A stretch of 64,000 nucleotides of DNA from a virus. Under the pieces are notes generated by a model. That model ran no database searches, was not told the origin of the DNA, and saw nothing but the letters and a program-made list of their open reading frames with translations. The stretch is from the IMG/VR virus record IMGVR_UViG_3300050821_005065, positions 1 through 64,000 of that record; one strand, 5' to 3'. The position numbers and the translations under genes were made by a program. This document shows positions 3,742 to 28,143 of this stretch, in pieces; the stretch's first letter is position 1, and each line of letters starts with the position of its first letter.

Positions 3742-4149
3742 ATGAGACAGCCTCGTTACCGCGCCGCACGCCGCGCAGCCCTCAGAGTCCAAGGAATTAC
3801 TTCAGCCAACCAGCAGGAAGTGTGGCAAGTCACTCCGAGTCGAATTGGAATGCCAGCTTGGGCGAAAGAGCGGGCAGTGAAAGGGCTAATGGGCTTCTGG
3901 TTGATGGAGTGGGACGGGGCGCGAGTCGCGAATCTCGACAGATTGCGCGGCGGCTTTCCCATTGTGCTGAGGCAACCCTTCCGGCGCTGTGAAGTCTGCA
4001 ACCGCCCCATCATCGGAGGAGAAGCGATTGACCGGCGCAACCAAGTGGAGAGTTGTGTTGGCGGCAGAGAGCTTCCTTGCCGAGACCAGTGTTTAGCCGA
4101 GCGGGATCTGGGATTGTGGACGCGATTGAGCGAGGTCAAAGCAGCGTGA
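3742..4149 (+). CDS. Hypothetical protein with C-terminal zinc-finger-like cysteines (135 aa)
   Basis: The start is set at 3742, after AAGGA and 4 nt past the previous stop; an upstream in-frame start at 3646 would overlap the preceding gene. The N-terminal half is Arg/Ala-rich. The C-terminal half carries CEVCNRPIIGG plus three further cysteines, suggesting a zinc-binding site. Its stop overlaps a GTG start (GTGA) of the large exported protein. Function is unknown. Confidence 0.6.
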   Translation: MRQPRYRAARRAALRVQGITSANQQEVWQVTPSRIGMPAWAKERAVKGLMGFWLMEWDGARVANLDRLRGGFPIVLRQPFRRCEVCNRPIIGGEAIDRRNQVESCVGGRELPCRDQCLAERDLGLWTRLSEVKAA

Positions 4150-7100
4150 GGCAGCGCAGTGATTTCATCTTCTTCCTGTTGGTGGTTGCCGTGGTGTTGT
4201 GCTTGGCCTCAGCCGCGCGCTGCCAATCGCCCTACGTAAACCTTACCGGCGTGGTCCAAGGGCCGAACGGCTTACCCGCAGCCAATCAAATAATTTCCCT
4301 CACTCCAACCCAGCAGTTCTTCGTCCCAGGCTCCGGAAGCAACTGCGATGGCTATACGTTGCAGATCACAGGGATTACTCTGTTCTGCGGGGATACGGTC
4401 AATTTCAATAACACCACGCCGGCGGCACCGGTGAATGGCTTAAATATTCAGTGGCAAACTCTGAACATTCCAGGCATTCCCGGAACCGACGAGGTAAGCG
4501 CAGCGATCGTAGGCGATGCGAATCCGAATCACTGCCTTAATGGTACGGGTGCATGGGCCGATTGCGGTGTAGGCGTCGTCGGCCCGATTACTCCCGGAGA
4601 TTGCGCGTACTGGGCCAGCACAACCGCCGTCGGAGACATTGGCGCTCCATGCGGCAGTGGCGGCGGCGGCGGCACACCCGGAACTCCGGTTGGATCGCTG
4701 CAAGGATACAATCCAACTCCTTCACCTCATTTTGGTGGAATCCCCAACACATCCGTAAACTTCACCACAGGGCAGACGCGGGTCGCCAACTTCAGCAATG
4801 TGCTTTACGCTCCCGATCCATCGGTTGTGACGGCAGGTGGATTCAACTGGCAGCAGAGTCCTTCGGGAACTTTGACGGCTGGAACTCCGGCGACCGTGAC
4901 TTTAACTCCGTGTCCGCTTGGGGTTAACGGACTTGATTACTGGAACACATTTCTCATTTCGGATTACACGACCGCAACGTTTACGAACGGCTCGGCGTCC
5001 ATTGCGGCAACTAATTCTTATTTTGCCGGAGAGATGGTTCGGTTTACTGGCAGCGTTCCAACGAACTTCAGCACAACTGCGATTTACTACGTTCTCTCGA
5101 CGGGCCTTTCGGGGAGCACGTTTCAACTGGCAGCGATCCCCGGCGGCACAGCAATTCTAGCCGGCGGAAACGGTTCCGCGACTGCGATTGACTGGGAAAC
5201 TCCGCAAATCACCTATGGTGGTACGTGTGCGTCCGGAGCATCTTCCGGAACGGTGCTGTTCACGCCAATCTATTCGCACGCGGCGGGCTATAGCATCGGG
5301 ACGGGTACGGCGGGCATTTACGAAACACTTGCGGCGAATGCCCAACCACAAACCGGCGGCTCGACCTTTTCGACCAACTATCGCATCGTGCTGGGGCCGG
5401 CGGGCAATCCGAACAACAACGGCCAGACCGGACCAACTGTATACCAAATCTTCGGCACGCTGAGAGCTGGGTTTTATAATTTGACGATTGACGCCTACGG
5501 CAGCGTCCTTCAGTGCTGGACGCGCAATTACTGCATCGACTATAACCGCCTGTCTGGGTCGCAGAACAAGTTCAACATCCTCGGGCCGACCATGGTCTCG
5601 ATGCAGAATTTGAACGGTTGGCCCATTGCCTCGACACAGTGCTCGGGAGGCGTGGTGACAATCAACACCACCGTGCCTCATGCGATTCAAATTGGCGATA
5701 TCACCGACGTACTGAGAACAGATAACGCCTTCTACTGGGGCGGATCGGCCACTTGGGGGCTCAATTACGACGGCCACACGGTGACCTCGGTAACCTCGAC
5801 TTCCTACAGCTACCCGATTAATGGTTCGTGTCCTGCCGGAACTTCACTAGCCAATACTCCTGGTTATACCAATGTCATCAACGCCCCGATCATGTCCACC
5901 CAGAACGGCATGCACATCGCAGACTTTCAGGGATTCTTAGCCGGAGCCGCCTACATCGGGACGCAAGGACATTGGAACGAAGGCCCTGTAGGGCTTAACG
6001 ATCAGGATTTTACGGTGGACAGATCGACCGATATCTTGTTGGTCTCTGGGCAGGTAACGCCATCGACTTGTTCGACCACCTATCCGTATTGTGGGTTCAA
6101 GATGTATTTCCCCGGCCCCGGCTCCCGAAACTCTTCCATTCCCCATCTTTACAATCTGGATTTCAACGTAGCCTGTACCGGAAACGGCATTGGCAATTTT
6201 GCCGGAAACACGATGGATGTCACTGGAGCCAATCTTCAGAGCGTGAGCCAGGTTGCGATTGTCTCTGGCAATCCGCTCAGTGGCTTTGGGCCTACCACGC
6301 TGTTGAATGTTTACGCCGAAGCGGGCGGCTGCACCAATCCGGATGTAGGTCTGATCGCGGATGCCGGGATTATCAACTACGGCACTCCAATCACGGTCAT
6401 TGGCGGAGAAGGTCCGGGCGGCGGATTAATCACACTAGCGACCGGAGGCAGCACGGTTTATGCCTACTATATTCAGGCAGTAGATTCGGTTGCGGGAGTA
6501 AGCGCTCCATTACTCTTTGGCGAAGCAGCTCCTTCAGGCAGCACCGTGAATGTGCAATTCCCGAGAATGCAACCCCTTCCCGGCAACACGATCACTTACA
6601 ACATAATCCGCACGACCGATCTTCATAACGCGCCAACTACATCAGCTTGTACGGGAGGAAGCACCAGCGCGTGCGGCTCCGTAACCACAGGAATGGCACA
6701 GTGCTCCGGCTTGTGGTGCTCATTCACCGATTCTGTCGCATCAAACACATCTGCGATCACTGTGACATCGCCCGCACCCTTTTTACCTTCTGCTACTTTC
6801 TGGCCTGCAAGTTGGGTGATGGAGGGGAATGGAGTAGCCTATGTAGTCGGTATTACGAACCAAGGTTGTGCGGAGGCGACGCTCAGTTTCGGTGGCCTCT
6901 CTAGCCCGGCCTGCTTTAGCGCGAACGATCCTAATGCCGGGAGCCTTACTTCATGGGGATCATCATTACAAGGGGGGCGAACCGCGTTAATTTTGGATGA
7001 CATCACCCAAATCACCCCTCCGGTTCGAGGAAGATTGAATTTCAATTACACAACCACGACGTACAAATATCCGCAGAGCGTCATCACCTTGGCAGATGCT

Positions 7101-8102
7101 TCGCCAGATGTAACCTTAGCTAATATTGGGCATCGGCCTTCGATGTCTGCCTCCGACACATGGATAGGCTTCGATTGTCTGAATTACGTTACCCTTCAGT
7201 GTTTGGGATTGGGCAGCCCGGTGTCAATTTCCAGCTACATCGGCGCTGTGCCAAACGCGGCTGGCGTTGGGGGATCATCCAATTGGACGCATCAACTTAC
7301 CGCATCTCTCGAAACCAGCCGAGTACCCAACCTCATTACGCAGGGATTGACCGTGCTGGGATCGTGTACCGGCTTCCTGTTCTGCGGGCCGTTCTCTCCC
7401 ACGAATCAGGTATCTGACACTTTTGTGCGGGCCAATAGCGGCACTTTAGGAGTGAACTGGACTTGCAGTTCAAACGGCACGTGGGGAATTACCAGCAATA
7501 CAGCCACGCCGCTTACCCTCACTTCGGGAACGGTCCTAAACTGCGCTTACACGGCGACCTCTTTCACCAATGATCAAGTATCGCAGGTTACATTTTCCGC
7601 ACCATCGACGGATGGCATCGGGGCGACCTGTCGAACTGCATCAGGCGCTTCGACCGGATACACGCTGCTTTTAGATGGCTTAGGCGATTCGCGCATCTTG
7701 AAAAGTGTAGCTGGCGTAGCTAGCAACCTCGCTACCGGCGGGCCCGCTTTTGCTATCGGCGATGTTGCAACTATCGCTTGCGTTGGAACGACGATCACGG
7801 CTTACAAAAATGGTACGCAAATTCTCTCGGCTACGGACAGCGCTATTACTTCCGGCTCTCCCGGCATGACCTACTTCAACAATCCTGCCGCAGGAAGCGG
7901 AGCACTCTCAAACTTCATCGGCGGAAACGCTTCATGGAATAGCGTGCAGGGCCTGTCAATCCAGAGCAATCCGATTCCAGGGCAGGAAGGCAGCCCGACT
8001 CTTAATACCGCGGTGTGCTGGAAGACGACTGGGGTAACGCCGACCTTGGGATATTGCTCGACCGCTCTTAGCGGCAGTCCGCCAACTTGCACATGCAACT
8101 AA
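4146..8102 (+). CDS. Large exported beta-rich protein, tail-fibre/lectin-like (1318 aa)
   Basis: The GTG start overlaps the previous stop, and the N-terminus (VRQRSDF, a hydrophobic stretch FIFFLLVVAVVLCLASAA, then RCQ) is a textbook Sec signal peptide. The mature part is Thr/Ser/Gly/Asn-rich. A carboxypeptidase-regulatory or Ig-like stretch (NLTGVVQGPNGLPAANQ) follows the signal. A GGGGG linker lies near residue 176. An Fn3-like segment sits around 760-830, and a concanavalin/LamG-like segment (SDTFVRANSGTLGVNW onward) around 1090-1255. Cysteines are frequent, fitting an extracytoplasmic location. It could be a receptor-binding or adhesion protein, but a signal peptide is unusual for a tail fibre. 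The function is inferred. Confidence 0.75.
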   Translation: MRQRSDFIFFLLVVAVVLCLASAARCQSPYVNLTGVVQGPNGLPAANQIISLTPTQQFFVPGSGSNCDGYTLQITGITLFCGDTVNFNNTTPAAPVNGLNIQWQTLNIPGIPGTDEVSAAIVGDANPNHCLNGTGAWADCGVGVVGPITPGDCAYWASTTAVGDIGAPCGSGGGGGTPGTPVGSLQGYNPTPSPHFGGIPNTSVNFTTGQTRVANFSNVLYAPDPSVVTAGGFNWQQSPSGTLTAGTPATVTLTPCPLGVNGLDYWNTFLISDYTTATFTNGSASIAATNSYFAGEMVRFTGSVPTNFSTTAIYYVLSTGLSGSTFQLAAIPGGTAILAGGNGSATAIDWETPQITYGGTCASGASSGTVLFTPIYSHAAGYSIGTGTAGIYETLAANAQPQTGGSTFSTNYRIVLGPAGNPNNNGQTGPTVYQIFGTLRAGFYNLTIDAYGSVLQCWTRNYCIDYNRLSGSQNKFNILGPTMVSMQNLNGWPIASTQCSGGVVTINTTVPHAIQIGDITDVLRTDNAFYWGGSATWGLNYDGHTVTSVTSTSYSYPINGSCPAGTSLANTPGYTNVINAPIMSTQNGMHIADFQGFLAGAAYIGTQGHWNEGPVGLNDQDFTVDRSTDILLVSGQVTPSTCSTTYPYCGFKMYFPGPGSRNSSIPHLYNLDFNVACTGNGIGNFAGNTMDVTGANLQSVSQVAIVSGNPLSGFGPTTLLNVYAEAGGCTNPDVGLIADAGIINYGTPITVIGGEGPGGGLITLATGGSTVYAYYIQAVDSVAGVSAPLLFGEAAPSGSTVNVQFPRMQPLPGNTITYNIIRTTDLHNAPTTSACTGGSTSACGSVTTGMAQCSGLWCSFTDSVASNTSAITVTSPAPFLPSATFWPASWVMEGNGVAYVVGITNQGCAEATLSFGGLSSPACFSANDPNAGSLTSWGSSLQGGRTALILDDITQITPPVRGRLNFNYTTTTYKYPQSVITLADASPDVTLANIGHRPSMSASDTWIGFDCLNYVTLQCLGLGSPVSISSYIGAVPNAAGVGGSSNWTHQLTASLETSRVPNLITQGLTVLGSCTGFLFCGPFSPTNQVSDTFVRANSGTLGVNWTCSSNGTWGITSNTATPLTLTSGTVLNCAYTATSFTNDQVSQVTFSAPSTDGIGATCRTASGASTGYTLLLDGLGDSRILKSVAGVASNLATGGPAFAIGDVATIACVGTTITAYKNGTQILSATDSAITSGSPGMTYFNNPAAGSGALSNFIGGNASWNSVQGLSIQSNPIPGQEGSPTLNTAVCWKTTGVTPTLGYCSTALSGSPPTCTCN

Positions 8103-8104
8103 AA

Positions 8105-9028
8105 ATGACACTCTTTTCTATGGTCGATCGACGGCTGAGCAGCACCCTTGGAGTGCTGGCTGTTTTTCTCGGCATCCTCACCTCCTGCGAACCCATCCCG
8201 GTCTACGCTCAGTTCGTTGTGGCGCCCACCACCGCAGAGTGTGCGACCTCAATTGATGGATCTGTCGTGGGAACCATTAATCCTCTGTCCCCACCAATTC
8301 TGACCACGAGCTTCACCGGCAGCTTATCTGCGGGAAATTACTTCGTCGAAGAGGCTTGGCTCGATTCGTTCGGACATACCACATTGGTCAGTCCGGAAAC
8401 TCCAGTTCAACTCACCGGCACCGGAGAATTGATTGAGAATATCCCCTCAAGTGGGATTCCGGCCACGGTCGTCACACGAAAGATTTATATCGGCACAACT
8501 TCTGGGTCAGAGACTCTTCAGGGCTCCGCCTCTGGCTCTACTGCTTATACTCAAAGCGTGCCGCTGGTCACGGGAGCGGCAGTTCCGACACTGAATAACA
8601 CAGTTTGCCAGGTAGTCGCGAACGATGCCGGCTGGCCCACGGGAACCGGTTATCTTGTCTCCCTTACTACTCCCTCGGGTGAAACGGCACCAGGGTATCC
8701 TTTGCAAGCCCAATTCCTAGGGCCGGGAAACAACATCAACTTAGGACAAGGTTTCCCGCAGTACAACGGGACAGTGCTGTATCCGATTCCAATCATGGCG
8801 CGACCCTACAATCATGGGCCGCAAAGCATCTCGGGAAATCTAACCTTGGGGCCCTACGCTTTGTCGGCCAACACCATGACGCTTGGCACGAGCGTAACTA
8901 ATCCCTCTGGAGGAACCAATGTTGTCTATCGCTGCGTTACCGCGGGGTCTACGCTGCCCATTGGATCGTTAACGATCAACGCCGCGGCTTGTGGCAGCAC
9001 ACAGGATACAGGTTTACGAGTTCCGTAA
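8105..9028 (+). CDS. Exported Fn3/Ig-like protein (307 aa)
   Basis: Starts 2 nt after the previous stop; the ATG at 8105 is preferred to the one at 8093, and neither has a strong ribosome site. Residues 1-37 form a signal peptide (RR, then LGVLAVFLGILTSCE through VYAQ). The mature protein has two Fn3-like segments, one with YFVEEAWLDSFGHTTLVSPE and one with GYLVSLTTPSGETAPG. The same style of module appears in the nozzle-like protein at 30802. Part of the exported cassette; the role is unknown. Confidence 0.7.
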   Translation: MTLFSMVDRRLSSTLGVLAVFLGILTSCEPIPVYAQFVVAPTTAECATSIDGSVVGTINPLSPPILTTSFTGSLSAGNYFVEEAWLDSFGHTTLVSPETPVQLTGTGELIENIPSSGIPATVVTRKIYIGTTSGSETLQGSASGSTAYTQSVPLVTGAAVPTLNNTVCQVVANDAGWPTGTGYLVSLTTPSGETAPGYPLQAQFLGPGNNINLGQGFPQYNGTVLYPIPIMARPYNHGPQSISGNLTLGPYALSANTMTLGTSVTNPSGGTNVVYRCVTAGSTLPIGSLTINAAACGSTQDTGLRVP

Positions 9029-9072
9029 CTCCCCGCAATGCCCAGCATCAACCCTTTAACCTTGGAGGAAGC

Positions 9073-9495
9073 ATGAAATACTCCGACTCAGTAACTTTAG
9101 TCCAACGCCAGTCCGATGGCTCAATCACGCGCACGAATGCGCTGGTGCTGGCCTCGGCAATCCAACCCAAAAACGCCAGCATCCACACAGGTCTCAAGAA
9201 TCAGCATGGCCTGTTACCCGAAGGCGAGTATCTTGACCTCGCATTCTTAACCCCGATGCCAGACGGGCAAGTGTTGAAGACCACGAGCGCGGAAAACTAT
9301 ACGCGACCGGCACATTTAGTCGCACCATGGAAGGACGGCGCGGTGATCGGATGGGAACCGAAAGTCGCTCCACCTTCCCCGGACGCCGCGAAGCTTCGCA
9401 AGTTTCTGTTCGCGAATTTCAAGAGCGAAACCGGCAACGAAACTCCCGAAGACTGCGCCATCCGCCTGCTGTCCGCCACTCTCAAAAAGAAGTAG
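9073..9495 (+). CDS. Hypothetical protein (140 aa)
   Basis: Strong ribosome site (TTGGAGGAAGC then ATG). The product has no signal peptide. Its sequence, with repeated polar strands (VTLVQRQSDGSITRTNAL) and a C-terminal helix (CAIRLLSATLKKK), is soluble and unrecognised. It lies between exported genes and a glycosyltransferase, so it could be cytoplasmic support for that cassette. Confidence 0.65.
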   Translation: MKYSDSVTLVQRQSDGSITRTNALVLASAIQPKNASIHTGLKNQHGLLPEGEYLDLAFLTPMPDGQVLKTTSAENYTRPAHLVAPWKDGAVIGWEPKVAPPSPDAAKLRKFLFANFKSETGNETPEDCAIRLLSATLKKK

Positions 9496-9500
9496 AACCT

Positions 9501-10529
9501 ATGTCGCGTATCCTCTTTATCGTTAAATTCAGGGAAGACTCTGCGGGGCGCTGTGCCTACGATGGAACACCAGCCTGTTATGGCGGACTCTATCACTCGG
9601 CGCTCTTTGTTGTGCAAATGCTGCGCGCGGCTCATGTCGATGCCAAACTCGTGCAGGTCTGCGACAACAATGACATCGACCGCGAAGTAGACCGCTACAA
9701 GCCCGACATCGTGATTATCGAAGGCTTGTGGGTCATTCCCGAGAAATTCCTGATCCTGGCGCAACTTCATCCTCGGGTGCGCTGGGTCGTAAGGATTCAC
9801 AGCGAGATACCCTTCCTGGCCTATGAAGGAATTGCAATTCAATGGGTCGATGGATATGTGCGGCAACTACAAGTCTATGTTGCGGCAAATTCGACTTACG
9901 CAACCCGCGATTTACAGGTTGTCGTGGGGTCGCGTTACGCCAGTAAGATTCTGTGCCTCCCGAACTTCTACCCGCTATTGAATCAGGTCGCCAAGCGGCA
10001 GAACGCTTTCCTGGATATCGGTTGCTTCGGCGCGCTGCGGCCGCTCAAAAACCAGTTATTACAAGGGATAGCCGCAATTGAGTTTGCCGAGCGCGAAAAA
10101 CGCTCCCTACGCTTCCACATCAATGAACGATGCGAGCAGATGGGCGATTCTGTACTGAAAAACCTGCGCGCATTGTTTGACGCTCCAGGCCGGGAACTCG
10201 TCGAACATAAATGGGAGACGCGGGAGCAATTCCTCGAGACTCTCAGTTGTACCGATATCGGAATGCAAGTCTCGTTTTCTGAGACCTTCGACATCACGGC
10301 TGCCGACACCGTATCGCTCGGAATTCCCTTGGTGGCCTCGTCCGAAATCGTCTGGGCCTCGCCGCACGCGCAAGCCTCCGTCACCAATGTAGCCTCCATT
10401 GTGCAAAAGTTGCGTGACGTAACTTCCTCGGTCTTCGGTTGGTGGATTCGCAAAGATAGCCTCAAGAGGCTTCGTACTTATTGCGATCACAGCCGCGCTA
10501 CATGGCTTCACTTCGCAGAACAATTTTAG
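9501..10529 (+). CDS. GT-B fold glycosyltransferase (GT4-like)
   Basis: Predicted sugar transferase of 342 residues. The N-terminal Rossmann half starts MSRILFIVKF. The C-terminal half has the GT4-type segment GCFGALRPLKNQ (about 175-185) and a nucleotide-sugar-binding region SFSETFDITAADTVSLGIPL (about 258-277) with Glu261. It starts 5 nt after the previous stop. It has no signal or membrane segment, so it should act in the cytoplasm. Lying among six exported proteins, it may modify cell-surface glycans or glycosylate a phage protein. The donor and acceptor cannot be read from the sequence. Confidence 0.8.
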   Translation: MSRILFIVKFREDSAGRCAYDGTPACYGGLYHSALFVVQMLRAAHVDAKLVQVCDNNDIDREVDRYKPDIVIIEGLWVIPEKFLILAQLHPRVRWVVRIHSEIPFLAYEGIAIQWVDGYVRQLQVYVAANSTYATRDLQVVVGSRYASKILCLPNFYPLLNQVAKRQNAFLDIGCFGALRPLKNQLLQGIAAIEFAEREKRSLRFHINERCEQMGDSVLKNLRALFDAPGRELVEHKWETREQFLETLSCTDIGMQVSFSETFDITAADTVSLGIPLVASSEIVWASPHAQASVTNVASIVQKLRDVTSSVFGWWIRKDSLKRLRTYCDHSRATWLHFAEQF

Positions 10530-10548
10530 TTTCCAAAGGAGAAACCAC

Positions 10549-11520
10549 ATGAAACGTACTTTGACCTCAACTCTAATCGCCCTTGCGCTGGTTGTCGCTT
10601 GCATTTGTATTGCGGCCCCGGCGTTCGCCCAAAACTACCCGCCCACCTGGGTCTTCGCCCGCGATTACAATTACTCGCCGGTCATCGGCCAGCAAGCCAA
10701 CACCTATACGTTCAATGGGGGAAGTTGCAACTATACTCCCACCGGGGGAAGCGTGAACGGCTTGGCGAATCCCATCTTCGATTTCTCAGGGGTCATCGTT
10801 TCAACTCCGGTGTACTTTCCGGTGTTCATCAACGATGCGACTCCGACGAATTCCGAGATTGTGACGCCCTCGGCAACGTCGAATACTCAGACAGTGTGCG
10901 GGTTCACGGCTTCGCCGGCGAACTCTCATACCACCTTCCAGCTTCAGTCGGGAACTGCCGGCTTGCAGGAAGCCGTCGCTTACCAGATCAACTCAGCGCC
11001 AAGCTCCGTGGTGATGCTCGATAAGTCTTGGTACACCTTGCTGACCGGGCTCGGTTCAACGCCTCCAAGTGCCGCGGCAGTCATCAACGCTTTGACCGGC
11101 AGCGCCAACGTGGAGATCGTCGATACCACCACGGCGCCGTGGGTGTCTTACTGCTGGAATGGGACGAACTACACCCCGTGTGCCAGCAATCAGACCGTGC
11201 CTGCAGTAGCGGCTGGTGCGGGCGCCGGAACCGGCCCAACTATTACCGTAGTTGGCACTGGCGTATCCGGGATTGTGACTCTGACCACGGGCACCACGCC
11301 GACGGCCTCGGCTACCATTTTTACCTTGACCTGGCCCGCGATCGCATCGGGCGGCTTCCAGTATGCTCCGAGTTGCACCATCTCAACCATCGGGACGCGG
11401 GCTTATACCGGAACCAACGCGAGCGTAGCTGGACCTCCGGCAGTCGATACCTACACTGCGACTTCCACGGCTCTCACGGCTTCAGTGAGCGGCTATAAGT
11501 GGTCGTATACCTGCCGATAA
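10549..11520 (+). CDS. Exported Thr/Ala-rich beta protein (323 aa)
   Basis: Good ribosome site (AAAGGAGAAACCAC then ATG). A clear Sec signal peptide (MKRTLTSTLIALALVVACI to AFAQ) gives cleavage near residue 27. The mature part is rich in Thr, Ser, Ala and Gly with paired cysteines (CNY, CGF, CWN, CAS, CTI, CR), and a low-complexity run of Ala-Gly at 220-228. No enzymatic motif is seen. It fits an extracellular or fibrous protein. Confidence 0.7.
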   Translation: MKRTLTSTLIALALVVACICIAAPAFAQNYPPTWVFARDYNYSPVIGQQANTYTFNGGSCNYTPTGGSVNGLANPIFDFSGVIVSTPVYFPVFINDATPTNSEIVTPSATSNTQTVCGFTASPANSHTTFQLQSGTAGLQEAVAYQINSAPSSVVMLDKSWYTLLTGLGSTPPSAAAVINALTGSANVEIVDTTTAPWVSYCWNGTNYTPCASNQTVPAVAAGAGAGTGPTITVVGTGVSGIVTLTTGTTPTASATIFTLTWPAIASGGFQYAPSCTISTIGTRAYTGTNASVAGPPAVDTYTATSTALTASVSGYKWSYTCR

Positions 11521-11559
11521 GCTGATCGTCGAATCTGGCGAAAGGAATAGGTCTTAGCC

Positions 11560-13536
11560 ATGCGAATGCGTCTCTGTGCGTTTCTCCTCCTTGGTGCCGT
11601 GTTCGCTGCTCCCTTATGGGGGCAGCGGGCCGGACCGCAAAACATTACCGCAGCATCAGGTGCAGGTTCGTGTGCTTCGGTTCAAATCTCTTCCGGCCAA
11701 GCCTCGACCGTTGGGATTCAGATCGTCGGAACTTGGTCAGCCACGCTTCAGCCCCAGGTTAAAATTGCCGCGCAAACCGCAGTCAACACCACGGTCACGC
11801 CGGCGGGCTCGTCATCCTCGCAAGGGACGATCACCGCGAATGGGATCTATACCGCAGTGGTTGCGGGCATGGATTTCTTTCAAGTCTGTGCGACGGCCTA
11901 CACCTCGGGAACCGCCACTGTCTATTTCAATCTCTCGAATGGCGTAGCGATCAATCAGTTAGGCGGAGGAGCTTCCGGCGCGGTTGCGATCACAGTCAAC
12001 GGGGGAGGAGTCTTAACCTCTCCTGTAAATTTGCAGAACGGCACGAACACCACCGCATCAAATTCCGGATCGAACGTCCAATACAACGTTCCCACTGCTA
12101 CAAGTTCTGTTCTGGGAGTCGTCGAGCCGGACGGAACAACCATCGCCAACACCGCGGGTGCCATTAAGGTGGCGATCCCGAACTGTATCAGCACAGTCGC
12201 CAATCTGGGATTGTGTCCATCCCTGCAAGCCGGGATTCAGGCTGAAGTGACCGACGGCGCTTCAGTCACGGACTGCACCGTCGGAGGAGGCTCAACCTTG
12301 GTCTCCTGCGCTTACAACGGCGCATCGTGGGCGGCAACTTTTCCCGGTGGGTTATCCGTCGCAGGCAGTCAGTTCGCGGTGCAAACCAACAACGGCTCAG
12401 GCGGCCTTGCAGGAATCAATTCTCCAACAACCAACGGTTACTACGGTTGCGGATTCAATGTGACAGCAAGCGTAGCAGTTCTTTTTGGCTGCACGCTTCA
12501 GGGCGTAGCCATCGACACCAGCAATCCGGCAACTTTACTGTATAACGACCGCGCGGCCTATGTTGATTGGACTAGCGGCACGGGTTTGGCGCTCCCAGCA
12601 ATCAGCGGCCAGTTCGGCTCCAACTTCCCCTTCGTTCTAGAAAATAACGCAGGCTCTACTTTGACCATTACCCCGAATGCTGGAGCAAGCAATCTTATCG
12701 ACGGCAGCGCCACGGGAACCTTGCTGCCGGGCTTCGCGGCCTTTGTCTATAGCGATGGAGTTACGAACTGGGATTCGATCAAGTTCCCGACCTTTGGAGC
12801 GTTCCCCGCCTGCACTAATATCCTTCAGTTCAGCACGACCACAGGATTCAACTGTCCAGCCGCGCCGCCGGTTAATTTGGGCGTGACCAACGTCAAGCCA
12901 GCCGCGGATAGCACCTCGACCTTTAGCGTCACCGGGCAAACGTCAGGTACGAACGACTTTCAAGTTGATACGACAAACCATCGCACATGTATAGGTTGTG
13001 CTGGTGCGGCCCCAGCGGCCGGTTTGGATGTAGGTGGAGGAAAGTTTGAGGTCAACAACACCACTGGAGCTTGCCCCGTAATTAACGGATTCACGACAGT
13101 AGCTCCTGGCTGCACTCCGTTGATGAGCAACACGGCCAGTGGAACCTTGAATAATAATCTAGGTGCCACAACCTTAACGGCCTCGATCGCTGCGACTCAC
13201 TGGTATGTCGCCGAGTTCGAAGTTGTGCAAGTGGCTGCCGGAACAAGCTGTGCAACCGCAACATCTTTTGTGGTCAACATCATCGTCCAAGATCCGAATG
13301 CAGGCGGGGCGAGCACGGTGCCATTGATTCCGATCGGCACGACCAGTTCGACGATCAGCATCAGCGCCAGCACAGGGAATGGCGCGGCAGGAGCGCAACT
13401 GGCACAGCTTCACTACGCTTGGGCGCAGAAGGCGAGTCAGACGCCGCAGTACAGCGTTACCGGATATTCGGCAGGAACGGCTTGTTCTCCGGCTCCAACG
13501 TTCGCAATCAATCCCATCGTGATGATGACCAAATGA
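11560..13536 (+). CDS. Exported tail-fibre-like protein (658 aa)
   Basis: Preceded by AAAGGAATAGG. The signal peptide is MRMRLCAFLLLGAVFAAPLW to G-Q. The mature protein carries phage-fibre-style segments: ATSSVLGVVEPDGTTI (about 186-201) is typical of trimeric fibre repeats, and a sequence of the fibre-tip type (FQVDTTNHRTCIGCAGAAPA, about 467-486) follows. The rest is Thr/Ser/Gly-rich beta sequence. Fibre-like repeats behind a signal peptide are unexpected, because virion fibres normally assemble in the cytoplasm. It ends with an ATGA overlap to the glycosidase gene. Confidence 0.75.
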   Translation: MRMRLCAFLLLGAVFAAPLWGQRAGPQNITAASGAGSCASVQISSGQASTVGIQIVGTWSATLQPQVKIAAQTAVNTTVTPAGSSSSQGTITANGIYTAVVAGMDFFQVCATAYTSGTATVYFNLSNGVAINQLGGGASGAVAITVNGGGVLTSPVNLQNGTNTTASNSGSNVQYNVPTATSSVLGVVEPDGTTIANTAGAIKVAIPNCISTVANLGLCPSLQAGIQAEVTDGASVTDCTVGGGSTLVSCAYNGASWAATFPGGLSVAGSQFAVQTNNGSGGLAGINSPTTNGYYGCGFNVTASVAVLFGCTLQGVAIDTSNPATLLYNDRAAYVDWTSGTGLALPAISGQFGSNFPFVLENNAGSTLTITPNAGASNLIDGSATGTLLPGFAAFVYSDGVTNWDSIKFPTFGAFPACTNILQFSTTTGFNCPAAPPVNLGVTNVKPAADSTSTFSVTGQTSGTNDFQVDTTNHRTCIGCAGAAPAAGLDVGGGKFEVNNTTGACPVINGFTTVAPGCTPLMSNTASGTLNNNLGATTLTASIAATHWYVAEFEVVQVAAGTSCATATSFVVNIIVQDPNAGGASTVPLIPIGTTSSTISISASTGNGAAGAQLAQLHYAWAQKASQTPQYSVTGYSAGTACSPAPTFAINPIVMMTK

Positions 13537-16500
13537 AGCGCCTCCTTCTCATCTTCGCGCTGCTGTGCGGCTCGGCCTTCGGGACGACCTATTTCGCGCC
13601 CACTTCCGCCGGATCGAACAACGGTACGGACTGCGCGGACGCTTACGCGATTGGGGACGTGGCGCACGGTATCAACGTCTCGGGAAATTGGACGGCGGGG
13701 AATACCATACACGTCTGTTCGGGAACATATACCGGATCGGCAGGATCGACGCTCATTACAGCGGCGGGCAGCGGATCGAGCGGCAATCCGATCAATCTCT
13801 ATCTCGATCCCGGAGCGGTTCTGACCGCTCCCTACTGGGCGGCAGGAAATGGGGCAATCAACATCTCCGGCCAAAGTTGGATTACCGTGGATGGATGGGT
13901 GGGTCATTCCTGTGGTTTCGTTAATGCCGTAGATGTGACTTGCGGCGGAGCGATAATTGAAAACTCCGCGAATGGCTCGAAGCTTGCCAACCAACAGAAT
14001 TCCCGTGGAGTATTCGCCGATCCCTGCCAGAACTGCATCGTCCGTGGGATTAATTTTCAGAATCTCTACGTTCACACCCTGCCACAAGCGGTGACTTCAA
14101 CCACCATCGTCGGCTCCGGGAACGGCGCTACGATTACGATCAACTGCACGGCATCCTGTCTCTTTCCGGTTGGAGCTGTCGTCAGCTTAATTCAGACCTC
14201 GAACGCGAGCATCAACTCGCACAATGGCTGCGGCCAGCCCATCACGATTACCAACGTCAGTCCTTCGACGCAGGTTACAGGTACGATCAACTCGACTTTC
14301 TGCGGTCTGACTCCGTCCGGCAGTTCCACGGGCGGAGCGGTAGCGGAAGTCGGTATCTCCAACTCTCAAGTAAACGCGGTTTACTTCTCCGGCCAGAACA
14401 CACAGGTTTGCAATAACTGGATTTCCAATTCTGCTTGGGCCATAATTGCGCACGCCGAAACGAATGATACCGGGATTCAAATTTGCCATAATCATATTGA
14501 CTCCAGCGACCACACCGTCGCCTACTCACCCAACAACGAGACCACGGCTTATACAGCCTATATCTACGGCAACCACTTCACGAACTTCATGAACTGGGAT
14601 TCTGGTTGCGGGCCGGAGAATGGAGCCTGTTCAACGTGGGATACGGGATCGAATAACTATCACCACGATGGTATCCACTTCTTCGATGGCGGAGTCAGCG
14701 TCTCCTACACGATGTTCATTTATAACAACGTGTGTGACGGAACTATTGGAGTGAACGCAACCGGCTGCTATTTCGCGGAAGGCACGACCTCCTCGAATCT
14801 GGCCTCAACAACTTACTATTTCAACAATGTAGCTGTGAGCCAGCCGACCAACACCAGCGGCCAAGGGCACACGATGTTCGTCGGCGGATGCCTCTCCGGT
14901 GGATCGACGCGGAATTGCTTCGTTTACAACAATACGGTGTTATCGGCGGCAAACGCCTCCGATGTAGCATACGACACCTCCGGCACGGACGCGCTGTTCA
15001 AGAATAACGCGGCACAATCCAGCGGCTCATACCTGCAATGGAATAACTGGACGATCACAACGCCCTCGACCGACATCGACTACAACGCCTATGCCGATAA
15101 TGGGCAGTGCGGCGGTAACGGTTGCTGGAATTGGGGCGCTCAAGGCATCGACGCCTCTAGCCTGGCAGCATGGAAGTCTGCGTGTGTCTGCGATAGCCAC
15201 GGAGTATACGCGGCTTCACTCGGAATCAATTCCAGTACGTACGTTCCGACGAGTACAGGATCGTTAGTCTACCATGCCGGAGTCAATCTAACCTCGGTTT
15301 GCAGCGGCCAACCCAGTCCCGGTTTAGGCGATTTGTGCTCGGATGCGGCTGGAGTCGCAAGGCCGAACTCGGCATGGGATGTGGGAGCATTCCAGTTCGG
15401 AGTAACTGTCACGGTCGCCACTCCAACGCTCTCTCTGGCAGCGGGAAGTTATGCCAACGCGCAAACGACTATCTGTGCAACGAGCACTCCGGGAGCATCC
15501 TGCGTCTACACGGCAGATGGCACCACACCAACGGTCTCCGGCACAACCTGCACTGTCACAAACGGCAACCTTGCACCGAATAACTACGTGCTCCCGGTAA
15601 GTCAGTCAGTGACGATTGCAGTTATTGGTTGCCTCTCTGGAGATACGGCAAGTTCGACCGTCTCGGCAGCCTATACCATCACCTATTCCTCGACGATAGC
15701 GGCCAGCAACTTCGGTTTACAATGTGGCTTCAGCAATGGAGCGTGCAAGAATCCCTCTCCTCCGCCGCTGGTCCTGTGGCCGACCTCAATTGCGACACCC
15801 TCAGTGGTTCGCATGTTGAGTTCCAACACCGATTGGGCAACGATGCAGCCGAACTCCAGCGGGATTGTTTACACCGACCTCGACGGCTACCTCGACGCAC
15901 TGGCGGCGACGGCGCTTGTAAGCGGGAATCCAGCTGCAGCCGACGAGGTATTTATCTCGGTGCCATGCTATCTAGCAGCCGCTCCGACGCCATGCCCCAC
16001 GGCCAGCCAGCCGGCGCACGGAACCAATAGTCCGCCCGCCGATCTGGTCGCTTCCGGATCTCCATCGTTCAACGCCTTCGTGACAGCGTTCGTTAACCAC
16101 TGCTCGGTTGCGGGAAATTGCGTCAAAAATCTCATCAAGTATTACGAAATGTGGAACGAACCCAACCTGCCTTACTCATGGGCGGGGACGGAACTTCAGT
16201 TGGAGCAGATGATTGCTCCTGCGGCACAGATCATCGCGGCCAACGTTCCGAACGCCGTGATCATGACGCCCTCTTTTAGTTCAGGAGGAAGCGGTTACAC
16301 CACCTACGCAAGCAACTGGCTAACGTTTGAAAACACGGTTGGACCTTTTTCGAGCATCGTCTTGCTGCACGACTACCTTGGGACTTCCATCCCAGAATCC
16401 CGCGGCCCGCCTGGTGCCTTTGCCACAGCCGTCCACGGTGTCGCCGGCTGGTCGAACGCGCTATTAGGTAACGACGAAACGAACTGGGCCGCCAGCAATA

Positions 16501-16973
16501 ATTTCAAGTGCGTGGGTTATAGCACCGCCGACTGCATCGGGCAAATCGTGCGATGGCAACTCATTCAAGCGAGCAAGGGTTACGCAGCCATCTGGTGGTT
16601 CGTTTGGAATGGAACCATCGGCAACGGGCCCGTGGGCTACGCCAGCGCTTATTACTGGGCAGAGCAATATTTGATTGGCGGGCACTTCACCGGGGCGGCC
16701 AGTGGCACAGGGACGCCGCCAGTCTGGACGGCTCCGTTCGTCGAAGGCAATGGCAAGACGGCGCTGTGGGTGTGGACGACGAGTGAAAGTGGAACGACCT
16801 ATACGGTGCCGAGCAACTACACGGATTACCGCGACATTTCGGGCGGATCGACTCCGATAACAGCGGGAAACAGTATCGCAATCAGCGTGCAGCCCATCAT
16901 GTTGGAACAAGGTACAAGCGTACTGCCGCCAGCAACGGTGAATGCGGCGATCGCGCTGTTAGCACAAAACTAA
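13533..16973 (+). CDS. Exported beta-helix / glycoside hydrolase fusion (1146 aa)
   Basis: The ATG overlaps the previous stop; the signal peptide is MKRLLLIFALLCGSAFG. About residues 20-600 resemble a right-handed parallel beta-helix (pectate-lyase-like, beginning TTYFAPTSAGSNNG). About 625-720 resembles the chitobiase/hexosaminidase C-terminal domain (TPTLSLAAGSYANAQTT with CVYTADGTTPTVSG). About 725-1060 is a TIM-barrel glycosidase of clan-A type: YYEMWNEPN gives a candidate acid/base Glu876, and GNDETNW a candidate nucleophile Glu982. A C-terminal beta-sandwich follows. Likely a secreted glycan-degrading enzyme; substrate unknown. The catalytic assignments come from motif reading, not alignment. 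Confidence 0.75.
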   Translation: MKRLLLIFALLCGSAFGTTYFAPTSAGSNNGTDCADAYAIGDVAHGINVSGNWTAGNTIHVCSGTYTGSAGSTLITAAGSGSSGNPINLYLDPGAVLTAPYWAAGNGAINISGQSWITVDGWVGHSCGFVNAVDVTCGGAIIENSANGSKLANQQNSRGVFADPCQNCIVRGINFQNLYVHTLPQAVTSTTIVGSGNGATITINCTASCLFPVGAVVSLIQTSNASINSHNGCGQPITITNVSPSTQVTGTINSTFCGLTPSGSSTGGAVAEVGISNSQVNAVYFSGQNTQVCNNWISNSAWAIIAHAETNDTGIQICHNHIDSSDHTVAYSPNNETTAYTAYIYGNHFTNFMNWDSGCGPENGACSTWDTGSNNYHHDGIHFFDGGVSVSYTMFIYNNVCDGTIGVNATGCYFAEGTTSSNLASTTYYFNNVAVSQPTNTSGQGHTMFVGGCLSGGSTRNCFVYNNTVLSAANASDVAYDTSGTDALFKNNAAQSSGSYLQWNNWTITTPSTDIDYNAYADNGQCGGNGCWNWGAQGIDASSLAAWKSACVCDSHGVYAASLGINSSTYVPTSTGSLVYHAGVNLTSVCSGQPSPGLGDLCSDAAGVARPNSAWDVGAFQFGVTVTVATPTLSLAAGSYANAQTTICATSTPGASCVYTADGTTPTVSGTTCTVTNGNLAPNNYVLPVSQSVTIAVIGCLSGDTASSTVSAAYTITYSSTIAASNFGLQCGFSNGACKNPSPPPLVLWPTSIATPSVVRMLSSNTDWATMQPNSSGIVYTDLDGYLDALAATALVSGNPAAADEVFISVPCYLAAAPTPCPTASQPAHGTNSPPADLVASGSPSFNAFVTAFVNHCSVAGNCVKNLIKYYEMWNEPNLPYSWAGTELQLEQMIAPAAQIIAANVPNAVIMTPSFSSGGSGYTTYASNWLTFENTVGPFSSIVLLHDYLGTSIPESRGPPGAFATAVHGVAGWSNALLGNDETNWAASNNFKCVGYSTADCIGQIVRWQLIQASKGYAAIWWFVWNGTIGNGPVGYASAYYWAEQYLIGGHFTGAASGTGTPPVWTAPFVEGNGKTALWVWTTSESGTTYTVPSNYTDYRDISGGSTPITAGNSIAISVQPIMLEQGTSVLPPATVNAAIALLAQN

Positions 16974-16996
16974 AAAGAGAAGAGAGGAATCACAAA

Positions 16997-17377
16997 ATGA
17001 AACGAATCCTGCTGGCAGTTCTGGTTCTCATGCTGGGGGTAGTCGCACAAGCCCAGGCATCATCGCCTTGCGGAGTTGTACCGACTCCGGGCGCTCCGCA
17101 TGTGTGCTTTAGCTGGTCCGCGTCCCCGACGCAAGGCGTGGCCTATAACGTCTACCGGGCGACGACTTCCGGTGGAGAGAATTACGCGACTCCGCTCAAC
17201 GCGGTGCCGCTGACCACGCTATACTTTTATGACACGACTGTGGTTGACGGAACAAAATACTTCTACACGGTGACCGCCGAGACTGGAGGTGCGCAAAGCT
17301 TGCCTTCTCCAGAGGCAAGCTCAATAGTCCCAGTGCCTCCTTCTGCCCCGACATCCCCCGCAGCTATCATTGATTAA
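16997..17377 (+). CDS. Exported single Fn3-domain protein (126 aa)
   Basis: Ribosome site GAGAGGAA upstream. The signal peptide MKRILLAVLVLMLGVVAQAQ is followed by one fibronectin type III domain (HVCFSWSASPTQGVAYNVYR, later TKYFYTVTAE) and a Pro/Ser tail. Fn3 domains commonly mediate carbohydrate or surface adhesion in phage and secreted enzymes. It is the last member of the exported cassette. Confidence 0.75.
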   Translation: MKRILLAVLVLMLGVVAQAQASSPCGVVPTPGAPHVCFSWSASPTQGVAYNVYRATTSGGENYATPLNAVPLTTLYFYDTTVVDGTKYFYTVTAETGGAQSLPSPEASSIVPVPPSAPTSPAAIID

Positions 17378-17422: not shown

Positions 17423-17695
17423 ATGAACGCATTCTTGACCTATGTAAAGGCGAACTGGAAGACGAACTTGGCGGCAGTGGCCGCATTCGCTTATTCGGTG
17501 CCTCAGTTCGTCACCGCCATTACCGCATGGCAGGCCGGACAACAGCCAAACTGGCACGCTGCGGTTATCAGCATCATTGTGGCTGCTGGACTTGCTGCTG
17601 CCAAGGACGGCACGAATCATTCCACGATGGCCCAAGTGAAAGCCTCGACTGCTGCTGTAGAGGAATCTAAGGCTACGGCGACGGGTACTCCCTAA
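17423..17695 (+). CDS. Holin-like small membrane protein (90 aa)
   Basis: Start at 17423 after CAGGAGGAAACC; an in-frame GTG at 17378 is less likely. It has two hydrophobic segments (NLAAVAAFAYSVPQFVTAI and AAVISIIVAAGLAAA) and a polar Ala/Thr-rich tail. This, and its position upstream of the endolysin, suits a holin that permeabilises the inner membrane. Inferred from topology and context only. Confidence 0.55.
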   Translation: MNAFLTYVKANWKTNLAAVAAFAYSVPQFVTAITAWQAGQQPNWHAAVISIIVAAGLAAAKDGTNHSTMAQVKASTAAVEESKATATGTP

Positions 17696-18923: not shown

Positions 18924-19285
18924 TGGTGGCCTCTCAAGAAACGGTTACACTCACGGTCGAGCACTTTGTAGACCGGGAGATCGGCCATCTCAAAGAGAAG
19001 ATGGAGTTGCGATTTGATTCACAAGCAGAAGCATTAGCGCTTGCGATGGTACGGCTGAACGAGCGTCTTGCCGAGATGAATGAGCTTCGCGGCCAGATCG
19101 CTACGGAACGAGGTTCGTACCTCACGAGAGAGGCTTACGAGCGAGAGCACAAGATCGTGAGCGACCGGGCAGGAGCGCTGGAGCTTCAAGCCAGCAAATG
19201 GTCGGGAAGCATCTGGATGTTGGGTGGGGTTATCAGCTTGGTCGTGGTAGGGATTAATATTCTGCTGAGAATGTGGCCGAAATGA
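18923..19285 (+). CDS. Coiled-coil protein with C-terminal membrane anchor (120 aa)
   Basis: Start at the TAATG overlap. Residues 1-90 are a long charged helix (VEHFVDREIGHLKEKMELRF onward); residues about 93-115 are one transmembrane helix (SIWMLGGVISLVVVGINILL). This tail-anchored layout is common beside phage endolysins, in holin or spanin-like proteins. Its stop overlaps the peptidase start. Confidence 0.6.
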   Translation: MVASQETVTLTVEHFVDREIGHLKEKMELRFDSQAEALALAMVRLNERLAEMNELRGQIATERGSYLTREAYEREHKIVSDRAGALELQASKWSGSIWMLGGVISLVVVGINILLRMWPK

Positions 19286-19701
19286 CCTCTACCCCGGCTT
19301 ACCAACTGCGCCACTTTACTGAGTTCGAACTTGCCTGTAGACATTGCGGTCGGCAGGGATGCACTGAAGAATTAAAACAAGCCTTGGACGACTACCGCGA
19401 TGTTGTGAAACTCCCCGTGATCGTGAACGACGCTTATCGCTGCGAGGAGCACAATGCGGCGGTCAGTTTGGTCTCAAAGTCTCAGCACCCGGAAGGCACT
19501 GCCGCCGATATTCGAGTACCTGGCTTGACTCTCCAAGAAATGTACGACGCCGCACTGAAGATTCCTGCTTTCAAATATGGCGGGATCGGCGTGTACGACA
19601 AAAACTTTATCCACGTTGACGTACGGCACACGGGCCTGGCGCGCTGGGCGTTTGTGGGCAACAAAGAGATGAGCATCGCAGAATCAGGATTGGTGAAATG
19701 A
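19282..19701 (+). CDS. M15-family peptidase endolysin
   Basis: Predicted zinc peptidase that cuts peptidoglycan cross-links (D-Ala-D-Ala carboxypeptidase-like fold). The 139-residue product has the SQHPEGTAAD motif with His69 and Asp76, and FIHVDVR with His111 and Asp113, the canonical M15 metal site. The N-terminus adds CRHCGRQGC, a small possible zinc knuckle. The ATGA overlap at 19282 favours that start over the GTG at 19273. No signal peptide, so release would depend on the neighbouring holin. Confidence 0.85.
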   Translation: MTSTPAYQLRHFTEFELACRHCGRQGCTEELKQALDDYRDVVKLPVIVNDAYRCEEHNAAVSLVSKSQHPEGTAADIRVPGLTLQEMYDAALKIPAFKYGGIGVYDKNFIHVDVRHTGLARWAFVGNKEMSIAESGLVK

Positions 19702-19784: not shown

Positions 19785-20207
19785 ATGGCAACCAGTAATC
19801 CCAGAGTGACGCAGATCGCGTTAAACGCGAATACGGGCGTGATGGTCAACATCATGTTGACCATGATGGCCTCGAAAGTCCTGGTCATGGAAGACCCCTC
19901 GGTCAACAACGGCGTTCCGCAAGGACTGCAGGGCTATTACATCGACACGCAACCGCCTCAGCCAGCAATCCCAATTGAAGCTGGCGGCGCTCCTCCTCCG
20001 CAAGCCACTCCGCAAGGGCTACAAGTGTGGCTTCCGCAAACCACGGGACAGGAAGGTCCAGCCTATCAACCAATCATCCTCGGTGGAACCGATGGCCGCG
20101 TGCATGGCGGGGAAGGCGATTACGTTGGAGCGCAAGGGTTAGTGGTCCTGCAGCTCCAGAGCTATTCGGAAACGCCGTCACAGGTGCTGTTGTTGGAATG
20201 GGCATAG
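19785..20207 (+). CDS. Hypothetical Pro/Gly/Gln-rich protein (140 aa)
   Basis: Good ribosome site (CAGGAGACCTT then ATG). The N-terminal 45 residues contain a Met-rich hydrophobic run (MVNIMLTMMASKVLVM), followed by a Pro/Gln/Gly-rich body. No family is recognised. It lies between lysis and portal genes. Confidence 0.55.
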   Translation: MATSNPRVTQIALNANTGVMVNIMLTMMASKVLVMEDPSVNNGVPQGLQGYYIDTQPPQPAIPIEAGGAPPPQATPQGLQVWLPQTTGQEGPAYQPIILGGTDGRVHGGEGDYVGAQGLVVLQLQSYSETPSQVLLLEWA

Positions 20208-20209
20208 CG

Positions 20210-20455
20210 ATGAAATTCCCACAGCCAAAACCATCCCCGCTAATTGATCAGGTTCACGCCTGGGCAGATGCGTGCCTCGGACAAGTGAAAGCAGGGAACG
20301 TTGAGAAGGCTGTGTACTGTGCGGAAGCGGCAGCGCATTGCGCATTTCTTTACATGGAATCCGTCTCTGGAACGATGGATCGGGAATGGCGGATACTGCG
20401 CGGGTGGAAGCCGATTCCCGGACCAATCGGTACAACTACGTGGGTGTTGGCATGA
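20210..20455 (+). CDS. Hypothetical protein (81 aa)
   Basis: MKFPQPKPSPLIDQVHAWAD onward; helix-rich with three cysteines. The ATG at 20210 is 2 nt past the previous stop; an in-frame ATG at 20198 is possible. Its stop overlaps the next ATG. Function is unknown. Confidence 0.55.
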   Translation: MKFPQPKPSPLIDQVHAWADACLGQVKAGNVEKAVYCAEAAAHCAFLYMESVSGTMDREWRILRGWKPIPGPIGTTTWVLA

Positions 20456-20712
20456 AACTCCCTTGGGTTTCCCGTGAACTCTTCAATCACGTTAAGCAAC
20501 AGTTGCAGGACTCGGAAGATGAGCGCCTATGGCTCCTTAAGAAACTCGCCGAACGGCCCGAAGTCCAAGCCGACGCGAAACCAGAGAAAGAAGAGTCGCA
20601 AGGTCCGCAACCCTACACCACGCCCTTTGATCGGATTGAGGCGAGATTTAATGAAGCTCTGCGAAGCGGACGGCTCACCGACAAGTCAAAGTACCGAGCG
20701 AGGATGCACTAA
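20452..20712 (+). CDS. Hypothetical charged protein (86 aa)
   Basis: ATGA overlap at the start. Strongly helical, charged product with a Lys/Glu-rich centre and the segment FDRIEARFNEALRSGRL. It ends directly against the portal gene's TTG. It may be a small head-assembly factor, but this is only context. Confidence 0.55.
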   Translation: MKLPWVSRELFNHVKQQLQDSEDERLWLLKKLAERPEVQADAKPEKEESQGPQPYTTPFDRIEARFNEALRSGRLTDKSKYRARMH

Positions 20713-23289: not shown

Positions 23290-23310
23290 CCGAAATGAGA
23301 GGACACTGAA

Positions 23311-24984: not shown

Positions 24985-25060
24985 CTCTTAGCCTGTGGAA
25001 ATCAGTTTGCATTCTATGACTTCTCGTAGTATGTTGCAGATGTTCTCTCCTTCTACCACC

Positions 25061-25077
25061 TCCAGAATTGTTCTGGA
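25061..25077. promoter_or_regulatory. Hairpin in the capsid-gene leader
   Basis: The 148-nt gap between scaffold and capsid genes holds no ORF but contains a perfect 7-bp inverted repeat, TCCAGAA-TTG-TTCTGGA, ending 55 nt before the capsid ATG. A TTGCAT-N17-TATGTT string at 25007-25035 is a weak promoter candidate. This long leader probably sets independent, high expression of the capsid gene. Confidence 0.35.
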
Positions 25078-25132
25078 CCGTGTAACCGCAAGCAATTCCC
25101 CTCTCACCTTTTCTTGCGGAAGGAGATAACTC

Positions 25133-26425: not shown

Positions 26426-26466
26426 TCCATTGTAAGTTGGTATTAAGAGTCAACAAATGAGAGAGC

Positions 26467-26499
26467 CCGCGCCAGAGCCAAGTATCTGGCGCGGATTTT
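26467..26499 (+). terminator. Rho-independent terminator after the capsid gene
   Basis: Perfect 10-bp stem (CCGCGCCAGA at 26467-26476, TCTGGCGCGG at 26485-26494), an 8-nt loop and then ATTTTT. It lies 42 nt after the capsid stop and just before the ribosome site of the next gene, so it may be leaky and attenuate downstream head genes. Confidence 0.85.
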
Positions 26500-26521
26500 T
26501 ATGCGACAAAGGAGATATCAA

Positions 26522-26845: not shown

Positions 26846-26855
26846 GGCAATTTTT

Positions 26856-28051: not shown

Positions 28052-28143
28052 GTCGGCGGTGGGCCACCAGGCCGCAGAGCGTCCATAACGGATCGTCTGG
28101 AGGGATTGAACCTCTTTACGCCGCCGATCAATACGAATTCTAA
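28048..28143 (+). CDS. Possible micropeptide (31 aa)
   Basis: ATGA overlap with the previous stop; product MSRRWATRPQSVHNGSSGGI plus eleven residues. It fills most of an otherwise empty 114-nt gap. Evidence is only the coupled start. Confidence 0.3.
   Translation: MSRRWATRPQSVHNGSSGGIEPLYAADQYEF

What the first reader, a model, noticed from the sequence alone, without database searches (positions are those of the whole stretch)
4146..17377. Cassette of six signal-peptide proteins in a phage genome
Six of eight consecutive genes begin with clean Sec signal peptides (4146, 8105, 10549, 11560, 13533, 16997), and several have tail-fibre, lectin, Fn3 or glycosidase features. Virion fibres normally assemble in the cytoplasm, so fibre-like proteins with export signals imply a different role, such as a secreted matrix, glycan remodelling of the host surface, or decoys for competing phages. 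I know of no described system with this content.
Basis: partly seen in the sequence, partly recalled or inferred. Interest (0 to 1): 0.82.

Follow-up and report, generated by a model that had tools for sequence, protein, structure and literature searches.

The report
Phage tail-fibre proteins with export signals
A group of uncultured soil phages makes its large fibre-like, sugar-binding proteins with genuine export signals and fully paired cysteines, so these proteins almost certainly fold outside the cytoplasm where phage particles are normally built, which suggests an undescribed two-compartment way of finishing a tailed phage.

Summary
Six of eight consecutive genes (4146-17377) of a complete 72-kb soil phage genome start with cleavable Sec signals; elsewhere in the genome 3 of 71 do. 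The feature recurs: 20 loci from about 18 contigs of related uncultured phages carry the same kind of cassette next to the virion genes. All 42 ORFs with the domain shared by many of these proteins keep a signal. Cysteine parity tests export independently: once the signal is removed, 65/69 large signal-bearing proteins have an even cysteine count (47/49 after clustering; other genes 45/80). Where the signal itself holds an odd number of cysteines, 30/32 become even only after removal. So the signals are very probably cut and the mature proteins disulphide-bonded, hence folded outside the cytoplasm.

The proteins have receptor-binding architecture (shared N-terminal domain, swapped C-termini), carry tail-fibre and virion domains, sit at the head of the late operon, and are the only variable large proteins in two related genomes. 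My best explanation is periplasm-folded receptor-binding fibres that join virions at lysis. Secreted, non-virion roles are not excluded. I found no precedent in the literature searched; virion proteomics would decide.

The parts
4146..8102 (+). Exported fibre-like protein 1 (1318 aa): signal (GTG start overlapping the upstream stop) ...ASAARC|Q; conserved mature N-terminal domain; variable middle; C-terminal virion-structural domain
   Evidence: 34 mature Cys; N-terminal aa 28-140 58% identical to the G003 homologue, which also has a signal; phrog_2804 E 8e-10 at aa 1086-1235
8105..9028 (+). Exported protein 2 (302-307 aa; start 8105 or 8120): signal ...VYA|Q; Ig-like domain, then a C-terminus that varies in length among relatives
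   Evidence: 20 loci; C41 and C163 invariant; model domain aa ~51-160 matches viral tail/structural proteins
9073..9495 (+). Non-exported cassette gene (140 aa), homologue follows the 8105-family gene in G003 and similar-looking genes in L047, L049, L063
   Evidence: 39% to G003:31454-31858; no signal
9501..10529 (+). Non-exported gene (342 aa), glycosyltransferase-4-like by a sub-threshold hit only
   Evidence: Pfam GT4-conflict E 0.018, below cut-off; 27% to G003:31876-32946
10549..11520 (+). Exported protein 3 (323 aa): signal ...APAFA|Q; ~190-aa mature N-terminal domain shared by 42 signal-bearing ORFs; C-terminal beta domain
   Evidence: C60 and C117 invariant in 35 sequences; AlphaFold pLDDT 82
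11560..13536 (+). Exported protein 4 (658 aa): signal ...PLWG|Q; conserved N-terminal ~115 aa, variable rest; 16 mature Cys
   Evidence: 49% over aa 18-130 to G003:35650, which also has a signal
13533..16973 (+). Exported protein 5 (1146 aa): signal ...CGSAFG|T; beta-helix-like N-terminus (by eye), CHB_HEX_C_1 domain, GH39-like KYYEMWNEPN motif; probable polysaccharide-acting module; 36 mature Cys
16997..17377 (+). Exported protein 6 (126 aa): signal ...AQAQA|S; small Fn3-like domain; 2 mature Cys
   Evidence: (phrog_33719 E 2e-5)
17423..17695 (+). Small membrane protein, possible holin, immediately downstream
   Evidence: by sequence only
19273..19701 (+). Endolysin (peptidase)
   Evidence: phrog_894 E 1e-28
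19785..48252 (+). Virion structural module (putative portal 20713, scaffold 23311, capsid 25133 and tail hub 30838, inferred from size and order; ejection/portal-family protein 38598; terminase 46624), 0.62% Cys and no large signal-bearing gene
   Evidence: terminase phrog_979 E 2e-29; 38598 phrog_21 E 1e-69

Best explanation
The cassette encodes the phage's receptor-binding fibres and spikes, and in this phage lineage they are made by an export route. Each protein is synthesised late in infection, sent through Sec, cut by signal peptidase I (mostly before Gln) and folded with all cysteines paired as disulphides in the oxidising periplasm of a diderm host. Tailed particles are assembled without them in the cytoplasm. 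When holin and endolysin open the inner membrane and wall, the particles meet the periplasmic pool, and the conserved N-terminal domains dock the fibres on the tail; the swapped C-terminal modules (lectin-like, beta-helix-like, glycosidase-like) bind or cut surface glycans of the next host. Well supported by sequence evidence: signals present and conserved, cleavage and disulphide pairing (through parity), modular N-conserved / C-variable architecture, virion-type domains. Inferred: periplasmic location as final compartment, docking on the tail, attachment at lysis, function of the tips, host identity.
For: Export and cleavage: 6/8 against 3/71 genes; rule false-positive rate 3/668; 42/42 ORFs with the shared N-terminal domain have a signal (41 by rule, one by eye), found with a profile built from mature regions only; in the 8105 family 14/21 by rule, the other seven look signal-like by eye, with start codons unclear in some. 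Disulphides: even mature Cys counts in 65/69 (p = 2e-15), 47/49 after clustering at 60% identity, other genes 45/80; of 32 proteins whose signal holds an odd Cys number, 30 are even after cutting and 2 uncut; invariant Cys pairs in both main families; Cys 2.65% in the window's mature cassette proteins against 0.62% in its virion proteins. Virion role: ~190-aa N-terminal domain shared by proteins with unrelated C-termini, up to three per phage; signal-bearing members carry tail fibre (phrog_11419, E 5e-24) and tail protein (phrog_17517, E 1e-23) modules and a virion-structural module; 8105-family model matches major tail protein, 'stabilization' and structural proteins; cassette lies directly upstream of the portal-side genes; virion genes of G000 and G003 pair nearly one to one at 38-78% identity, so the cassette is the only evident place for variable receptor-binding proteins.
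Against: No virion proteomics exists for any member. The N-terminal domain has no confident PDB match (best E 0.067), so docking on a tail is inferred from architecture; the conserved 279-aa protein at 34979 could be another tail appendage. An N-conserved/C-variable layout would also suit a cell-surface anchor. Cultured podoviruses with distantly related terminases (HMO-2011, phiM6, CRP-3) show no signal on any structural-region gene of 180 aa or more and 0.27-0.29% Cys there, so the route has no known parallel. The 13533 and 16997 genes have no homologue in G003, and 13533 could be a free enzyme. Some gene starts (8105; L057, L064 members) are uncertain.
Confidence: 0.55

Rival explanations
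1. The proteins are exported and disulphide-bonded but never join the virion: they decorate or leave the infected cell and act as adhesins, glycan-degrading enzymes, superinfection blockers or decoys.
For: Real export signals; glycan-acting modules: CHB_HEX_C_1, GH39-like motif, F5/8 type C; Porphyromonas phages carry Q-rule signal genes thought to alter the host envelope (PMC10367356).
Against: Tail-fibre, tail-protein and virion modules inside the same proteins; several large paralogues sharing one N-terminal domain per phage; placement at the head of the structural operon; leaves the phage without an obvious receptor-binding protein.
Confidence: 0.3
2. Dual use: the same exported proteins sit on the host surface or in the matrix during infection and are also picked up by virions at lysis.
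For: Compatible with all data above; multiple paralogues per phage leave room for a division of labour.
Against: No data separate it from the two simpler models.
Confidence: 0.1
3. The apparent signals are uncut virion membrane-interacting segments or recent host-derived leaders without function; the proteins fold in the cytoplasm.
For: Standard location of tail-fibre folding in cultured phages (established knowledge); cultured podoviruses with distantly related terminases lack such signals.
Against: Even Cys counts appear only after removal of the signal (30/32 against 2/32); signals kept in 42/42 domain copies although their sequences have diverged; Cys-rich against Cys-poor virion proteins.
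Confidence: 0.04

Closest known systems
Tail fibres / tailspikes of tailed phages (P22, T7, K2-2, phi297 type)
   Same: Large beta-rich modular proteins, conserved N-terminal part and variable glycan-binding or glycan-cutting C-terminal part; tail-fibre PHROG modules in members
   Different: Known ones fold in the cytoplasm without Sec signals; these carry conserved, cleavable signals and are densely disulphide-paired
Coat proteins of filamentous phages (pIII, pVIII)
   Same: Virion proteins made with Sec signals and, for pIII, disulphides formed in the periplasm (own knowledge)
   Different: Membrane-anchored and assembled during extrusion through the envelope; these phages are tailed with terminase and portal, and the mature proteins look soluble (only 5 of 72 have a strongly hydrophobic stretch)
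Q-rule signal-peptide genes in Porphyromonas gingivalis prophages (PMC10367356)
   Same: Phage-encoded Sec substrates with Gln at +1
   Different: Five genes of unknown function, linked by the authors to host-envelope change; not described as a fibre cassette in the late operon
HMO-2011-type and Sinorhizobium phiM6-type podoviruses
   Same: Among the closest cultured terminases found (about 31-35% identity)
   Different: No signals on any structural-region gene >=180 aa and very few cysteines
Phage morons exported to the envelope (Lom, Bor, Llp-type; own knowledge)
   Same: Phage gene product exported by Sec
   Different: Small, single genes; here 3-6 large modular genes in a conserved block beside the virion genes

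Membership tests
Sec / signal peptidase I substrate | Positive n-region, hydrophobic core, small-x-small cleavage site | tested here: met
   (own rule; SignalP not available)
Sec / signal peptidase I substrate | Signal actually removed | tested here: met
   Indirect only: Cys parity is even after removal in 30/32 odd-Cys signals, 2/32 uncut; no direct N-terminal data
Disulphide-bonded extracytoplasmic protein | All cysteines pairable in the mature chain; invariant Cys pairs | tested here: met
   65/69 even; C60/C117 and C41/C163 invariant
Tail fibre / tailspike (receptor-binding protein) | Conserved N-terminal domain with exchangeable C-terminal modules | tested here: met
Tail fibre / tailspike (receptor-binding protein) | Homology or fold match to known tail-fibre proteins | tested here: inconclusive
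   Some members hit tail fibre/tail protein PHROGs and the 8105 family matches tail/structural folds; the shared N-terminal domain itself has no confident PDB match
Tail fibre / tailspike (receptor-binding protein) | Presence in the virion | not testable with these tools
   needs virion proteomics
Tail fibre / tailspike (receptor-binding protein) | Folding and assembly in the cytoplasm (as in cultured examples) | tested here: not met
   signals and parity indicate export; so the claim is that they work like fibres, with a different route
Bacteroidetes Q-rule substrate | Gln at +1 in most signal peptidase I substrates | tested here: inconclusive
   36/72 by a cut rule blind to the +1 residue, 69/72 when the nearest small|Gln site is preferred; a Granulicella plasmid 8/30; host unknown

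The most novel reading that the evidence does not exclude
A lineage of tailed dsDNA phages builds its virion in two compartments: capsid and tail in the cytoplasm, disulphide-locked receptor-binding fibres in the periplasm after Sec export, joined only at lysis.
Probability: 0.5. Interest if true: 0.9.

Novelty: new variant of a known kind. Interest (0 to 1): 0.75.

Why it matters
Annotators have treated a signal peptide as a sign that a variable binding protein is bacterial rather than viral (PMC6199706); this group shows that the rule fails. If the proteins are virion fibres, tailed-phage assembly has an unrecognised extracytoplasmic step that would explain how densely disulphide-bonded receptor-binding proteins can exist, and it gives a source of very stable glycan binders and depolymerases. 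If they are not in virions, soil phages spend roughly a sixth of their genome on secreted proteins, which would be equally unexpected. Either way the question becomes testable with specific peptides.

Tried and rejected
(1) Single-protein peptide-pattern scans for 13533, 17841 and 38598 found no usable relative; terminase and family alignments worked. A Granulicella plasmid follows the Gln +1 preference only weakly (8/30), so Acidobacteriota remains a guess. (3) tblastn of cassette, portal and capsid proteins against 50,697 phage records: no match. (4) Sequence relation between the 8105 family and the tail-hub protein: not significant. (5) Start sites after the signals: considered and rejected because the signal region is conserved as protein in nearly all family members and parity needs its removal, with the signal translated in frame in each. 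(6) Lipoprotein reading of 8105 (LTSC): not favoured since relatives have A|Q signals.

Full report
What was checked. The window is bases 1-64000 of a 72,157-bp IMG/VR virus record whose ends share an exact 97-bp direct repeat, with a GroES-like gene running across the join, so the genome is very probably complete. With a rule-based predictor (own script) 6/8 cassette genes and 3/71 other genes pass (p = 8e-6), while 3/668 non-gene ORFs pass.

Relatives. Terminase relatives (70-81% identity) led to G003 (70,286 bp), a syntenic relative. Its virion genes pair nearly one to one with those of the window at 38-78% identity, and in the same place, after a phage GroES/GroEL pair, it has its own cassette with signals on the homologues of 4146, 8105, 10549 and 11560. 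The 8105 family found 20 loci from about 18 contigs. Most show 3-6 large genes with signals in one block, and wherever the contig reaches that far the cassette leads into the lysis genes and the genes at the portal end of the virion module. Among non-truncated genes of 600 aa or more in the examined loci, 26 pass the signal rule and 9 do not; of these nine, one (L056:13414) clearly has a signal by eye, one (L059:398) has an uncertain start, and seven are portal-size, tail-hub or ejection-type proteins.

Signals kept. Profiles made only from mature regions were used to search all ORFs of the loci. All 42 ORFs with the 10549-type N-terminal domain have a signal (41 by rule, one by eye). In the 8105 family 14 of 21 pass the rule and the other seven have a signal-like N-terminus by eye, some with unclear start codons. 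The signal sequences themselves have diverged.

Cysteine parity. This test does not depend on the predictor's view of export. Counting cysteines after the predicted cut, 65 of 69 signal-bearing proteins of 180 aa or more (with at least two Cys) have an even number (p = 2e-15); one per 60%-identity cluster gives 47/49; genes without signals give 45/80. Thirty-two of these signals themselves contain an odd number of Cys: 30 of those proteins are even only after removal and 2 are even uncut. The simplest reading is that the signals are cut and every remaining cysteine is paired. In both main families two cysteines are invariant. Mature cassette proteins in the window hold 2.65% Cys against 0.62% in its virion proteins. 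In three cultured podoviruses with distantly related terminases no structural-region gene of 180 aa or more has a signal and Cys is 0.27-0.29%.

What the proteins are. Thirty-six of the 72 large signal-bearing proteins share a ~190-aa mature N-terminal domain, up to three per phage, followed by unrelated C-terminal parts. Members of the cassette carry tail fibre (phrog_11419, E 5e-24), tail protein (phrog_17517, E 1e-23), virion structural (phrog_2804, E 8e-10), F5/8-type-C (below Pfam's cut-off) and chitobiase-C modules. AlphaFold of 10549 is confident (pLDDT 82); it has no confident PDB match (best E 0.067, to a phage tailspike), but matches uncharacterised phage proteins in BFVD (E 3e-8). 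The 8105-family model is good only at aa ~51-160, an Ig-like domain that matches viral tail, 'stabilization' and structural proteins. Ig-like folds are widespread, so this match is supportive, not conclusive.

Interpretation. Export, cleavage and disulphide pairing are well supported by sequence evidence. The receptor-binding-fibre role is the better-supported function because of architecture, module content, operon position and the lack of any other variable large protein in the virion regions; attachment to the tail at lysis is inferred. Known tailspikes such as that of P22 can join particles outside cells (own knowledge), so late attachment is feasible.

Known context. I found no description of tailed phages with exported fibre cassettes in ten library searches (nine on the phage question, one on the Q-rule; open-licence papers only). 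One paper uses the absence of signals as a mark of phage origin for variable proteins (PMC6199706); another notes five Q-rule signal genes of unknown function in Porphyromonas phages (PMC10367356). The Gln at +1 seen here resembles the Bacteroidetes Q-rule (PMC5837995), but the host is not established.

Limits. No SignalP, no proteomics, no host; the signal rule and gene caller are my own; relatives were found through two gene families and share ancestry, though clustering leaves the parity result intact.

Noticed in passing
window 784-2430 (GroEL), window 2-292 joined with record 71768-72157 (GroES): The phage encodes its own GroES/GroEL pair directly upstream of the cassette; GroES runs across the record ends. 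G003 has the same pair at 21624-23860 (59% GroEL identity); G000 GroEL is only ~41% identical to the best plasmid-borne GroEL.
   Followed up: partly
window 38598-45431: A 2277-aa virion protein matching phrog_21 'portal protein' over aa 988-1316 only, and Prochlorococcus podovirus proteins of unknown function; probably an ejected internal virion protein rather than the portal.
   Followed up: partly
window 17841-18650: A 269-aa protein without signal between the possible holin and the endolysin; TIM-barrel glycosidase-like by eye, no family hit.
   Followed up: no
window 51406-52068, 52065-52421, 55520-56242 (minus strand): Three further signal or lipoprotein genes outside the cassette; possible envelope or spanin-type proteins.
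   Followed up: no
L030:19465-19980 (G003): A 171-aa signal-bearing protein ending in ...VGPNFRF, outer-membrane-barrel-like by eye, in the G003 cassette; no counterpart in the window.
   Followed up: no
L030:12959-13888 (G003): A 309-aa gene without signal inside the G003 cassette, papain-like by eye (no Pfam hit); no counterpart in the window.
   Followed up: no
L002:9089-12070: A siphovirus-type tail protein with the same KYYEMWNEPN glycosidase-like motif as 13533-16973 but no signal peptide.
   Followed up: partly
L051, L053, L054, L056, L058, L060, L061 upstream of the cassette: A small cysteine-free protein of 110-120 aa (MNSKNQAETLQEKV... and similar) sits just before the first signal gene in these related phages; possible cassette partner or chaperone.
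   Followed up: no
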